Shown here: in pieces, positions 6,111 to 52,331 of the stretch
Position numbering within the stretch: position 1 is the stretch's first letter
How the letters are laid out: every line of letters begins with the position of its first letter
NCBI RefSeq assembly: GCF_024256385.1
Contig: NZ_JAMLFW010000001.1
Span: 682,001-746,000 of the forward strand
Source: Anatilimnocola floriformis
GTDB lineage: Bacteria > Planctomycetota > Planctomycetia > Pirellulales > Pirellulaceae
Direction: 5' to 3'
Length of the DNA stretch: 64,000 bases
The notes under the pieces: model-generated
Databases searched by the model: none
Told to the model about the DNA's origin: nothing
What the model saw: only the letters and a program-made list of their open reading frames with translations
Translations under genes and position numbers: made by a program

Positions 6111-6149
6111 CCTCTCAGTTTATCTCAAAGTTAAGGGAGGGCGAGGCTC

Positions 6150-6201
6150 TGTCACGCGACACAAAGTTTTGCCGCGTTAATAGCGACATAAAGTTTTGCC
6201 G
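6150..6201 (+). repeat. Left end of the insertion element: tip plus two transposase-type repeats
   Basis: After the TGTCACG tip, two near-identical units lie at 6156-6174 (with one C for T change) and 6183-6201; both read 'GCGACAxAAAGTTTTGCCG'. They are spaced 27 bp and have the opposite orientation to those at the right end, as expected for terminal transposase-binding sites. Presumed binding-site function is inferred from position and repetition. Confidence 0.85.
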
Positions 6202-6242
6202 ATCTAGCTAGCTTTCATGTTCACTTGTCTACGCCAGTGTTT

Positions 6243-7455
6243 TCATTTGCGACGCTGCGCCGGCCCTGGCACTTGGAGAGTGCGCACGGCGTGTGGAGTC
6301 CAGTCGGAGGCGTATATCGCTCGCAGTTGGTTGCCTGGTTCATCGGTCACCAGCCATTCCAAGCGATCGGGGTCGAAGCTCAGGTACACGTCGCGGCCGG
6401 CGTGTCGGGCGCCGATAAACAGCTTGCGGTGATACGGCCCGATCTTGCCCGACTGATCGACACGACGGGGCACGCAATAGGTGCTGAGATGCTCAAGCAC
6501 GCGGTCCCAGTTCCAGTGACGTCGTTCCCAACCTGCCGTGTAGGTGCGCCCCGAATGCTTCAGCTCGGGGAACGCCACGACTCGCGGCTGCTTGTGAATT
6601 GCGGGATAAACTTCGCGTTGCAAGCGATCTTCATGCCGCAGTCGCGATTGAAACTGACGCACAGTTCGGCACTGCCGCGGTTCCGCCCAAGTATTCACCA
6701 GGCTCTGACTTCGTTCGATCACGCCGTTCTCCTGCGGTCGGCGCGGCGTGTTCCAGTGCATCTCAATACCCAAGCCGATGAGCCATAGCGCGAGCGCGGT
6801 GGGGAGATCGCTCCACGAACCCCACGGTGCGCCGTTGTCGACACGCATCACGTGCGGCCTTCCATATTCGCTAAAAACCTGCCGCAAACAGGCCTGCACG
6901 CGAACCACGGGAACCTGCGTGAAGTGACCGAGGGGAAAAAACAAACGACATTAGCACCGCGCCGCTGCACTCATCGGCCACGCGCAACCACGACACCGGC
7001 GCGCCGCTGGCCAGTCGCTTCTGCTCCGCAGCATCAATCTGCCAAACGTGGTGCGGCTGCTCTGCTCGCGTCACGCGCGTGCCCTGGCGACGACCACTCG
7101 GCGCAGGCCGCGTGGTCCGCAACCAGCGCTGCAATGTGCGCGTGCTGGGAAGTTGAGCCGCAACAAACCACCGCGTTAATTCAATTCGCAAACGCTCAGC
7201 GCCCCAGCGCCGATGCTGCTCACGCAATCGCAATGTTCGCCGCCGCACCACTTCCGCATCCTGCGAACGCTCTCTGCCGCACGCCTGATAATTGGCCGCC
7301 AACGCAGCCTCGCCCCGCGCCCGCAACCGCTGCAAAAAGCTCCTCACCGTCCGCTCGCACAACTCCAACTCCTGGGCGATGAGCGCCACCGACTGCCCAT
7401 TCTTAGATCGTCGCCAAATCGCCCGCCGAACCGCCAAAGCCAAAGCACGAGGCAT
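6243..7455 (-). pseudogene. DDE (rve integrase-core) transposase, frameshifted
   Basis: Two frames combine into one ~400-residue transposase. The N-terminal part (start 7455) has a helix-turn-helix region ('SVALIAQELELCERTVRSFL'), a second helical DNA-binding stretch, and the first catalytic Asp in 'WQIDAAEQ'. The frame is lost at a run of six A's at 6936-6941; the adjacent frame continues from there with 'ACLRQVFSEYGRPHVMRVDN' (second Asp in RVDNG), 'PRRPQENGVIERSQ' (catalytic Glu) and a C-terminal beta-rich tail ending at 6243. A single added base in the homopolymer explains the break; with five A's the frame is continuous. The shift needed to restore it is +1, not the -1 used by IS3-type elements, so programmed recoding is unlikely. 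The protein is probably inactive unless the run is variable or a sequencing error. Confidence 0.85.
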
Positions 7456-7524
7456 GATCGAATCTCCGCAGCAACGAATTCACCAGACGCCCGAGACGAA
7501 CTCATGCTACCGAATCCCACAACC

Positions 7525-7624
7525 CGGCAAAACTTTATGTCGCGATTAACGGCAAAACTTTATGTCGCGATTAACGGCAAAACTATGTGTCGCGATTAAC
7601 GGCATAACTTTATGTCGCGTGACA
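7525..7624 (-). repeat. Right end of the insertion element: four tandem repeats
   Basis: Four copies of a 20-bp unit ('CGGCAAAACTTTATGTCGCG') begin at 7525, 7550, 7575 and 7600, an exact 25-bp period with the spacer 'ATTAA'. Copies 3 and 4 have one or two changes. The last copy leads directly into the terminal TGACA at 7624. The asymmetry (four sites right, two left) resembles the unequal arrays of transposase sites in Tn7-like elements, where they orient the transposition complex. Confidence 0.88.
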
Positions 7625-7726
7625 GGCTCCCGCCGAGCCGTAGCGGTTGAAGGCAGTCGTCGCCGGCCGTTGCAGATCTACCTCGGCGGCTCGGCAGGAG
7701 CCTCGCCGTCCCGAGTGGCCGCGCCT

Positions 7727-19015: not shown

Positions 19016-20074
19016 CTAGCGAGCCGAGGCAACCTTATCGACGGCGAAGAAGGTGACTTCCTTCGTTTCGCCAGCGGCCAGATCGATGACCTTTTCTTCG
19101 GTCACGAGCTTGCCATCGCGTTCCATTTCAACGCGAACCTTGTAGCCGCTCCAGCCCTTGCCGGTCGACAGGCCCGTCGTCTTGAAGACGCGGATTTCGC
19201 CAGCGGCGGTGGTGGCGTTGCCGGCCAGATAAACCTTGGCTTCGGCAGGCACGCGAACCGTCAGCGAGGTCTCAACCGACTTGGCGGCTTCGAAATCGAA
19301 GGCCAGCGAGTTGGTGGCGCCAGCGCGGAGGTCGATCGTCTTGGTTTGTTCCAGAGTCTGGCCATCGCGAACGATTTCGGCCCGCACTTCATAGGCGTAG
19401 CTCATGCCGCCAGCCAGGTCACGCGACACGTACTGGCGAACTTCGCCGGTGCTGGTCGTGGCCGTGCCATTGACGAAGATCTTGGCATCGGTCGGCACGC
19501 TGACGGTCAACAGGCCTTCGCCACTGCGGAGGCTGGTCATCGGAGCACCGGCAGGAGCTGCAGGTTGAGCCGGAACGACGGGAGCGCCTTCTTGAACTTC
19601 AACCGGAGCGTAGTACACGCCGCCACCCGAAGAACCACCGCTCGAACCACCCGAGCTGGACGAACCGCCCGAGCTACCGCCCGACGAGCCACCCGAAGAA
19701 CCCCAGCTACCGCTCGAACCGCCCGACGAACCACCGCTGCTGCCGTGGTGACGACGCCAGTGGTGACCGCTCGAGCCACCCGAGCTGCCGGACGAACCGC
19801 CCGAGCTGCTCGAACCACCCGACGACGAGCTCCAGCTGCCGCTCGAACTGCCCGAAGAACCACCCGAGCTGCCCCAGCTACCGCTGCTGCCGCCCGACGA
19901 ACCCCAGCTACCGCTCGAACCGCCCGAGCTGCTCGAACCACCCGACGACGAGCTGCCACCACTGCTGTGGTGCCAACGCCAACCGGCAAACGCTTCGTTC
20001 GCCTGGCCAACAACCGCAACACCAGCGGCAGCGGCGACCGCAACGAAGCGCAAGGCCTTCAGAGACTTCAACAT
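19016..20074 (-). CDS. Secreted Ser/Gly-rich protein with two TIGR03000 domains
   Basis: 352 aa from the ATG at 20074, which has a GAGG box 6 nt upstream (better than the TTG at 20098). A signal peptide (to 'EAFAGW') is followed by ~130 residues made almost only of Ser, Gly and Trp in 'GGSSGSWGSS'-type repeats, interrupted by a 'GHHWRRHHG' cluster. The C-terminal half holds two copies of the TIGR03000 domain: 'LTVSVPTDAKIFVNGTATTS' and 'LTVRVPAEAKVYLAGNATTA', each with 'SYAYEVRAE/SGYKVRVE' and 'TIDLRAG/VIDLAAG'. TIGR03000 is a PEGA-like beta domain nearly restricted to planctomycetes. The low-complexity part may be an adhesive or surface linker. A strong terminator follows, so the gene is its own unit. 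Confidence 0.88.
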   Translation of the reverse strand: MLKSLKALRFVAVAAAAGVAVVGQANEAFAGWRWHHSSGGSSSSGGSSSSGGSSGSWGSSGGSSGSWGSSGGSSGSSSGSWSSSSGGSSSSGGSSGSSGGSSGHHWRRHHGSSGGSSGGSSGSWGSSGGSSGGSSGGSSSSGGSSGGSSGGGVYYAPVEVQEGAPVVPAQPAAPAGAPMTSLRSGEGLLTVSVPTDAKIFVNGTATTSTGEVRQYVSRDLAGGMSYAYEVRAEIVRDGQTLEQTKTIDLRAGATNSLAFDFEAAKSVETSLTVRVPAEAKVYLAGNATTAAGEIRVFKTTGLSTGKGWSGYKVRVEMERDGKLVTEEKVIDLAAGETKEVTFFAVDKVASAR

Positions 20075-34477: not shown

Positions 34478-34489
34478 ATAGTCTTCTTC

Positions 34490-34850
34490 TTACTCCCTCG
34501 CCTCGGTACTCCGGGGAGAGGGCTGGGGTGAGGGGCTGGAAGCTTGGCTCGCCTCTATTTGGCAGATATTTTTTCCGAGTGTCTCAGGAGATGCATCGTT
34601 AGTTGGTTCTCAATGACGTCGTATTTATTGATCTATTTAGTTGACAACCGTCCACTATGTCGCGAAAATTCAGGTCATCTCATCAGCCGCCGGGCGCTAG
34701 CCCCGGCTTCTTCTGCGAGTGAAGGTAAGAGCCGGGGCCAGCGCCCGGCGGCTGATGGGACTGTGTTGAGATTAGGTCGATAACGCTGCTAACCCTCACC
34801 CCGGCCCTCACTCCCAGCCCTCTCCCCGAGGCGGGGCGAGGGAGCGAAGC
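34490..34850. repeat. Gene-poor stretch with dispersed repeats
   Basis: Holds three repeats: a 'CCTCGGTACTCCGGGGAGAG' type unit (about 34499-34518, also near 47680); a long palindrome with 27-bp arms (34681-34707 and 34731-34757, one mismatch, arm start 'CATCAGCCGCCGGGCGCTAG'); and an inverse-type unit 'CCTCACTCCCAGCCCTCTCC' (about 34807-34826). No gene is convincing between 34478 and 34944. Confidence 0.75.
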
Positions 34851-47663: not shown

Positions 47664-47671
47664 TTCATTCT

Positions 47672-47722
47672 TGCTCCCTCGCCCCGGTACTCCGGGGAGA
47701 GGGTTGGAGTGAGGGGCGAACT
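47672..47722. repeat. Dispersed 'CCCTCGCC..GGGG' repeat between convergent genes
   Basis: The sequence 'CTCCCTCGCCCCGGTACTCC' (47674-47693), followed by 'GGGGAGAGGG' and 'AGTGAGGGGCG', repeats a unit seen at 34499-34540 and, inverted, near 34800-34850. It forms a GC-rich hairpin (CCCCGG/CCGGGG) that could end both convergent transcripts. Confidence 0.7.
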
Positions 47723-51020: not shown

Positions 51021-52331
51021 CTACTGCGGTTGCTGCAATCGCACCAAGATCCAGCGTTCCGTCTTGCCGTTTTTGTGCAGCAGCGCGGGAGCTTCACCTT
51101 GCGAGAGATTGCCGAGGCCGGCTTCCATGACGTTGGTCGTGTTGCCGCCGACGGTCCACGAGATGCGTTGCGTATTTTTGTCGACGCCGCCGTGGATCGG
51201 ATACGAGCGGTCGCTCACTTCGTCGGTGTAGTTGCCACGGACGACGCCCGTCTGATTTACCGCGAGTTGCAGAATCAACTGCGGATGCTGTTGATCGTTC
51301 TTCACCATCGCAAACACGCCGAGCGGCAGCCACTTGTCGTTCGGTCCAACCGCCGCGGCAGTTCCCGCAGCGGCCAGGTCCGAGGCTTGCTGGCTGAAAT
51401 CTTCAGCAGTGCCCGCCGATTGGCCGTCGATCATGATGTTGCCATTCACATAGTTCACGTTGTTGCCGTAGTCATACGACACCGGTCGGTTCGTGTAATT
51501 GCAATGCGTGGCAATTGCGCCCCAAGCGGCAGGTGTCCAAGCCGAACCGGCGGCCCAAGCCGCAGGCGCCCAGGCATCGACATGCGTCGTGTGCCAGGCC
51601 GGGCTGTACATATCGGGCCGGTCAAATGAGTTCCGCACGGCAGCGTAGCCAGCGGCAGCGCCGTATTGCGGTTGATTGCGATTGGCGTAAGTAGCACCGG
51701 CTACGGCGCCTTCGGCACCACTGTACTGAGGCTGATTGCGATTCGCCGCGGCAGCGCCGGCAGCAGCGCCTTCAGCGCCGCTGTACTGCGGTTGATTGCG
51801 ATTGGCAGCAGCGGCACCGGCAGCGGCTCCTTGAGCGCCACTGTAGTTGGGTTGATTGCGATTCGCTGCGGCGGCGCCAGCAGCAGCCCCTTCGGCCCCA
51901 CTAGCGTTCGGTTGATTGCGATTGGCGGCCGTGGCGCCCGCGGCAGCACCTTCAGCGCCCGAGGGCTTCGAATTCTTATTGTTGTACTCTTCCGCGCCGG
52001 CGGCTTTGTGACCGTTGTTCGACTGCTGTTTGCTCTCGCCCCAGGCACCGCCTGGCGGTTTGCTCGACCCAGGTCGGGCGGCGGGATTATTCCCTTCGGG
52101 CTTGTTGCCCTCAGGGCGACCTTCCGATCGGCCGCTCGTGTTGCCCGGGCCCGATCGGCCTGGTTCTGAACGACTTGGTTCTGAACGACCTGGCTCAGAG
52201 CGCTCACCGCCGGCTCCACCGGGTCGTTCGCCACCACCACCACCGGGCTTGCCGCGTGCCTGACCGAATGCGCTGGTAACGGTGAGTCCGAGAATCATCG
52301 CAAAGGCGATTCCGATCCATTGTCGTGTCAT
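51021..52331 (-). CDS. Secreted protein with five 20-residue 'NRNQP' repeats
   Basis: 436 aa from the ATG at 52331, which starts a clear signal peptide ('WIGIAFAMILGLTVTSAFGQ'). A ~100-residue low-complexity zone of Gly/Arg/Ser/Pro ('SEPGRSEPSRSEPGRSGPGN') is followed by five near-exact 20-residue tandem repeats ('SGAEGAAAGAAAANRNQPQY' type, residues ~125-225). The C-terminal ~180 residues form a different domain ('NDKWLPLGVFAMVKNDQQHP', 'RISWTVGGNTTNVMEAGLGN', 'TERWILVRLQQPQ'), a folded beta-rich domain of the kind found in planctomycete secreted proteins. Function unknown; a surface or cell-wall role is plausible. The repeats are likely to vary in number. It has a solitary transcriptional position on the minus strand. 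Confidence 0.75.
   Translation of the reverse strand: MTRQWIGIAFAMILGLTVTSAFGQARGKPGGGGGERPGGAGGERSEPGRSEPSRSEPGRSGPGNTSGRSEGRPEGNKPEGNNPAARPGSSKPPGGAWGESKQQSNNGHKAAGAEEYNNKNSKPSGAEGAAAGATAANRNQPNASGAEGAAAGAAAANRNQPNYSGAQGAAAGAAAANRNQPQYSGAEGAAAGAAAANRNQPQYSGAEGAVAGATYANRNQPQYGAAAGYAAVRNSFDRPDMYSPAWHTTHVDAWAPAAWAAGSAWTPAAWGAIATHCNYTNRPVSYDYGNNVNYVNGNIMIDGQSAGTAEDFSQQASDLAAAGTAAAVGPNDKWLPLGVFAMVKNDQQHPQLILQLAVNQTGVVRGNYTDEVSDRSYPIHGGVDKNTQRISWTVGGNTTNVMEAGLGNLSQGEAPALLHKNGKTERWILVRLQQPQ

What the first reader, a model, noticed from the sequence alone, without database searches (positions are those of the whole stretch)
6150..7624. Single-transposase element with Tn7/Mu-like ends
Seen: TGT...ACA tips, 5-bp target duplication GGCTC, two repeats at the left end and four at the right with a 25-bp period. 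Known: this end layout and a 5-bp duplication are typical of the Tn7/Mu/Tn552 transposon group, which also needs an AAA+ partner. Here only one short DDE transposase (no ATPase gene) is present. Either a simplified relative of that group or an independent design with the same end logic.
Basis: partly seen in the sequence, partly recalled or inferred. Interest (0 to 1): 0.62.

Follow-up and report, generated by a model that had tools for sequence, protein, structure and literature searches.

The report
REP-targeting IS481-like insertion sequence
This is a small one-gene jumping DNA element, related to the IS481 family, that in this planctomycete-like genome always lands at the same base of a repeated palindromic sequence, and whose transposase gene, as in most of its relatives from other bacteria, is split by a reading-frame break at a slippery run of T and C.

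Summary
An insertion sequence fills 6150-7624 with tips TGTCACGCGACA/TGTCGCGTGACA, 5-bp duplication GGCTC, two boxes left (27-bp spacing) and four right (25-bp). Seven copies exist in the genome, with an identical 1346-bp core and 4, 4, 3, 3, 3, 3 or 1 right-end boxes. By sequence the transposase is an IS481-like DDE protein; its distant fold resembles TnsB/IstA/MuA, but no ATPase is present, and ordinary IS481 elements show the same two-box ends. (1) All seven copies sit at the same nucleotide of a ~107-bp inverted-repeat (REPIN/MITE-like) family. REP targeting by an IS481 element is already known from P. fluorescens SBW25. (2) The transposase lies in two frames that meet at a T6C4 run between catalytic D1 and D2. 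In a 100/100-supported clade of ten relatives (Planctomycetota, Bacteroidota), seven break frame at this same codon, six of them +1, with purifying selection on both sides. This suggests programmed recoding. I rate it a new variant of a known kind: an IS481-related, palindrome-targeting clade with recurrent recoding inside the catalytic domain.

The parts
6150..7624 (-). Insertion sequence, 1475 bp (transposase on minus strand)
   Evidence: Seven copies with identical core and own duplications
6145..6149 (.). Target duplication GGCTC, left copy
7625..7629 (.). Target duplication GGCTC, right copy
6150..6174 (+). Left tip and outer box TGTCACGCGACACAAAGTTTTGCCG
6183..6201 (+). Left inner box GCGACATAAAGTTTTGCCG (27 bp inward)
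7600..7624 (-). Right tip and outer box (box 1 of 4)
7575..7594 (-). Right box 2
   Evidence: present in 4- and 3-box copies
7550..7569 (-). Right box 3
7525..7544 (-). Right box 4 (innermost)
6871..7455 (-). ORF1: N-terminal HTH region and first catalytic Asp (VWQIDA), 194 aa
   Evidence: IS481 profile 56 bits, HTH_28
6932..6942 (-). Slippery run GTT TTT TCC CC (T6C4), site of the +1 frame change
   Evidence: same codon broken in six relatives
6243..6944 (-). ORF2: second Asp (VDNG), Glu (QENGVIER) and C-terminal beta-rich domain, 233 aa
   Evidence: IS481 profile 47 bits; read-through product P0001, 403 aa
6135..6149 (+). Left piece of the interrupted REPIN/MITE-like target (GGGAGGGCGAGGCTC)
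7630..7712 (+). Rest of the interrupted target including its other arm (7688-7712 GGCTCGGCAGGAGCCTCGCCGTCCC)

Best explanation
It is an autonomous insertion sequence whose transposase belongs to a distinct clade related to IS481. Shown: two-frame gene, paired end boxes, 5-bp duplications, seven near-identical copies, and exclusive insertion at one nucleotide of a repeated palindromic element. Inferred: ribosomes (or RNA polymerase) slip by +1 at the T6C4 run, so that a 403-aa HTH-RNaseH-barrel transposase is made at a low, set level. Its HTH part binds the 25-bp boxes, and the synaptic complex joins the TGT/ACA tips to a 5-bp stagger at GAGCC in the REP arm without any ATPase. Target choice is made by the transposase itself, recognising the REP sequence or hairpin. 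The number of right-end boxes changes by recombination between the direct repeats.
For: Seven copies with identical core, at least six independent insertions, all at GAGCC of the same arm, five in one orientation and two in the other. About 89 exact target arms in 8.93 Mb, so roughly 1e-5 chance per insertion. Transposase: IS481 profile 105.6 bits, far above IS3 and IS21. Clade of ten, support 100/100. Frame break at the same codon in seven of ten; dN/dS 0.08 and 0.14 before and after the break between two Spirosoma-like relatives, 0.20 and 0.28 between window and L094, where synonymous sites are near saturation. Relatives also sit in palindromes: L095 in a palindrome with 15 exact and 29 near copies in its own genome, 3 of 4 copies in G940, and L072. 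A published SBW25 IS481 element does the same in REPs.
Against: The profile score is below NCBIfam's cut-off of 224; ordinary IS481 relatives score 214-226 and even a true IS3 member scores 142. Slippage is not measured; one relative (L093, 5'-truncated) is in frame and one (L147) breaks by -1/+2. L145, L146, G904, L094 and one G940 copy do not lie in a strong palindrome. Frame breaks at homopolymers could be assembly errors, though six genomes show them.
Confidence: 0.8

Rival explanations
1. The frame break is an inactivating mutation. The seven copies were spread by an intact master copy, or spread just before the mutation, and the element is now dead.
For: The pyrimidine run is prone to indels; a close relative (L093) is in frame with one base fewer; the mBio paper reports a 1-bp deletion that truncates one SBW25 IS481 copy.
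Against: No in-frame copy exists in this genome: all seven cores are identical. The same codon is broken in six other relatives, including four or more copies in a genome whose contig is 7.4 Mb (G940), and both halves stay under purifying selection.
Confidence: 0.2
2. A minimal member of the Tn7/Mu/Tn552/IS21 group that lost its ATPase or borrows one in trans.
For: TGT/ACA tips, repeated boxes, 5-bp duplication; fold search ranks TnsB, IstA and MuA first.
Against: Profile scores favour IS481 by 70-80 bits and no Mu or TnsB family is hit; no ATPase within any copy; ordinary IS481 elements share the end layout. A genome-wide ATPase partner was not searched for.
Confidence: 0.07
3. Target preference is not encoded by the transposase: the copies arose by recombination or by duplication of REPIN-bearing segments.
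For: L003 and L006 share 1.4 kb of flank.
Against: The other five flanks are unrelated apart from the repeat, both orientations occur, and every copy has a perfect 5-bp duplication.
Confidence: 0.04

Closest known systems
IS481-family element of Pseudomonas fluorescens SBW25 (pflu2158, pflu4347, pflu4873, pflu5832; PMC11708052)
   Same: About 1.3 kb, single transposase, ~49-bp inverted repeats (the length of two boxes), inserted at one position of a REP or REPIN
   Different: Reported as one reading frame; putative 4-bp duplication (which the authors question); no extra right-end boxes reported. Its sequence could not be fetched here, so clade membership is untested.
IS481 family (NCBIfam NF033577)
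   Same: DDE core, best profile match, TGT/ACA tips, two boxes about 25 bp apart per end, 4-5 bp duplications
   Different: Only 105.6 bits against a cut-off of 224, split gene, four right-end boxes in this copy, REP targeting
IS1397, ISKpn1, ISPsy8, ISRm22 and others (REP-targeting IS of the IS3, IS110, IS4, IS256 and IS5 families; PMC1525189)
   Different: Other transposase families
IS21 (IstA/IstB), Tn7 (TnsB/TnsC), Mu (MuA/MuB)
   Same: Predicted fold HTH-RNaseH-barrel, multi-box ends, TG..CA tips
   Different: No ATPase, sequence far away, smaller element

Membership tests
IS481 family | Transposase matches the IS481 profile better than any other IS family | tested here: met
   105.6 bits vs IS3 33.7, IS21 25.2, IS630 21.2
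IS481 family | Score over the curated IS481 cut-off (224 bits) | tested here: not met
   105.6 and 87.9 bits for two clade members; ordinary elements 214-226. Hence filed as IS481-related, not as a plain member
IS481 family | TGT..ACA tips, short 4-15 bp duplications | tested here: met
   5 bp in seven window-type copies and L145; 4 bp in L095, G904 and three of four G940 copies. The 4-15 bp family range is from memory
IS481 family | Paired end boxes about 25 bp apart | tested here: met
   Whole clade and at least eight ordinary IS481-like elements
IS481 family | Single-frame transposase | tested here: not met
   Two frames in window and seven relatives (L146 elsewhere)
Tn7/Mu/Tn552/IS21 group | Companion AAA+ ATPase | tested here: not met
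   No such ORF in the element or next to the window copy; not searched genome-wide
Tn7/Mu/Tn552/IS21 group | Transposase of the TnsB/MuA/IstA sequence families | tested here: not met
   IS21 25 bits, no Mu or TnsB hit
Tn7/Mu/Tn552/IS21 group | HTH-RNaseH-barrel architecture | tested here: inconclusive
   Foldseek top hits TnsB/IstA/MuA, but TM about 0.3 on a pLDDT 62 model
[quoted passage not shown]
   7 of 7
REPIN (RAYT-mobilised REP pairs) | Cognate RAYT gene flanked by the same REP | tested here: not met
   Ten Y1 transposases in the genome, none with this REP within ~1.5 kb; the target may be a MITE instead

The most novel reading that the evidence does not exclude
A clade of IS481-related, palindrome-seeking insertion sequences across Planctomycetota and Bacteroidota keeps a programmed frameshift (mostly +1) at a pyrimidine run encoding Val-Phe-Pro, inside the catalytic domain between the first and second catalytic Asp, so that active transposase exists only as a recoded fusion.
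Probability: 0.65. Interest if true: 0.58.

Novelty: new variant of a known kind. Interest (0 to 1): 0.42.

Why it matters
Known programmed shifts in IS3 and IS1 are -1 and join a DNA-binding half to a catalytic half (from memory). Here the break lies within the catalytic domain and is mostly +1, so neither half could cut DNA alone. That is an unusually tight switch and a natural +1 recoding signal in bacteria outside the well-known cases. A small ATPase-free transposase that inserts at one base of a palindromic repeat is also a compact model for how target specificity is built into an RNaseH-type transposase, and the 4/3/1 box variants give a natural test of how many end boxes are needed.

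Tried and rejected
Single-sequence AlphaFold model: useless (pLDDT 36). Close relatives in 199 genomes of the same family and 392 of the phylum: none beyond about 30-40% local identity. Viral contigs: none. PDB by sequence: nothing significant. Orthologous empty site in the same-genus genome: the two flanks lie at different places there, so no clean empty site. RAYT gene for the target repeat: none linked. L145 target as a high-copy repeat: only two near matches. G654 single-frame element first thought to be a clade member: falls with ordinary IS481. L094 has no duplication; its flanks look like two unrelated genes (by eye), so it was not used for targeting.

Full report
Observation. The element at 6150-7624 is real and complete. 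It has TGTCACGCGACA tips, a 5-bp duplication GGCTC on both sides, two boxes at the left (spacing 27) and four at the right (spacing 25). The whole-genome search placed the window in an 8.93-Mb, 17-contig genome and found seven copies of the element. Their 1346-bp core is identical. The right end differs only in box number: four boxes in two copies (1475 bp, including the window), three in four copies (1450 bp) and one in a seventh copy (1400 bp). Losses are whole 25-bp units, as recombination between direct repeats would give.

Target. Every copy is inserted at the same nucleotide of a repeat. The arm is GGCTCGGC[G/A]GGAGCCTCGCCCTCCC, cut so that GAGCC is duplicated, with five copies in one orientation and two in the other. 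About 89 exact 15-bp matches to the arm exist in the genome, mostly as inverted pairs about 81 bp apart. Joining the flanks of six copies gives a ~107-bp two-armed element like the 20 unoccupied ones that I fetched; the seventh copy sits in a solitary arm. Two copies (L003, L006) share 1.4 kb of flank and may be one event, so there are at least six independent insertions. The repeat has 19 exact matches in the one same-genus genome and is very abundant in one other genome of the family. Ten Y1-type transposases occur in the genome but none has this repeat beside it, so I call it REPIN- or MITE-like rather than a proven REPIN.

Transposase. Two minus-strand frames, 7455..6871 and 6944..6243, give IS481-profile matches to consecutive parts of the model. 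Read through the overlap by +1 they give a 403-aa protein, P0001. It matches IS481 best at 105.6 bits over residues 10-273 (IS3 33.7, IS21 25.2), with the rve catalytic core in Pfam just under its cut-off. This is well below the NCBIfam cut-off of 224 and the 214-226 bits of ordinary IS481-like relatives from the same phylum, so it is a diverged sister group. A model built with six rows reached pLDDT 62; Foldseek ranked V-K TnsB, IstA, MuA and Tn7 TnsB first and retroviral integrases next, with low TM scores.

Relatives. A decayed copy on a Spirosoma plasmid seeded a profile scan that found L093 (Spirosoma), L094 (Planctomycetota MAG, 48% identical, same TGTCACGCGACA tips) and L095 (Bacteroidetes MAG). 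Whole-genome searches added L145, L146, L147, G904 and G940. Ten members form one clade with 100/100 support apart from ordinary IS481 elements.

Frame break. At the codons for Val-Phe-Pro the window reads GTT TTT TCC CCT. L094 and L095 read TTC CCC CCA, G904 and G940 TTC CCC CTA, and L145 TTT TCC CTG TAA; all five need +1, as does the window. L147 reads ATT TCC CCC CCC and needs -1 or +2. The truncated L093 reads TTC CCC TAT and is in frame. L146 instead breaks at A8G4 nearer the N-terminus. L072 is decayed at this place. Both sides of the break are under purifying selection: dN/dS is 0.08 and 0.14 for G904 against L093, and 0.20 and 0.28 for window against L094, where synonymous sites are near saturation. 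Recurrent breakage at one codon with conserved coding on both sides is hard to explain by decay. tRNA-Pro is known to slip on CCC-C sequences (PMC4519876); the window's own site, UUU-U, would slip on tRNA-Phe (inference). Whether the ribosome or the polymerase slips is not shown.

Ends and targets across the clade. All members with readable ends have two boxes about 25 bp apart, and so do at least eight ordinary IS481-like elements. Palindromic targets recur: L095 lies in the centre of GTAGAGACGCGATTAATCGCGTCTCTAC with duplication TTAA, and that palindrome has 15 exact and 29 near copies in its genome. Three of four G940 copies and L072 lie in strong hairpins, a strength reached by at most 7e-4 of random positions in a G940 sample; one of these G940 copies (L183) has an imperfect duplication. 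L145, L146, G904, L094 and one G940 copy do not. The window's own target is short-stemmed as a hairpin (5-bp stem), so there the repeat sequence rather than hairpin strength defines it. REP targeting is known for five other IS families (PMC1525189) and for the SBW25 IS481 element (PMC11708052).

Verdict. The element is an IS481-related, REP-site-specific insertion sequence: a new variant of a known kind. The recoding claim is the most novel part; I put it at 0.65. Paper searches for IS481 with programmed frameshifting found no earlier report, but the library is incomplete and ISfinder was not available.

Noticed in passing
L002/L001 vs L003-L006 vs L007 right ends: Right-end box number varies 4/3/1 among copies with otherwise identical sequence, a natural series for testing end function.
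   Followed up: partly
window 7688-7712 and G000 genome-wide: A ~107-bp inverted-repeat family (about 89 exact arm matches) with conserved interior and no linked RAYT gene; its mobiliser is unknown. In one other genome of the same family (G027) the arm occurs 375 times.
   Followed up: partly
window 19617-19954: Degenerate tandem repeat rich in CCGCCCGA/GAGCTGCTCGAACCACC units, probably a repetitive Ser/Gly-rich coding stretch.
   Followed up: no
window 51638-51937: Four 60-bp-period tandem units, 67-78% alike.
   Followed up: no
window 34487-34536 and 47668-47717: 50-bp dispersed repeat TTCTTACTCCCTCGCC...GAGGGGC, 92% alike, in two places.
   Followed up: no
L146 (G603:C900): A relative whose frame break lies at an A8G4 run (A AAA AAA G type) instead of the Val-Phe-Pro site, suggesting the recoding site can move.
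   Followed up: partly
L147 right end: A second IS481-like end (TGTCACGCGCAATAAGGTTGGCG, two boxes) lies directly beside the element, possibly a nested or adjacent relative.
   Followed up: no
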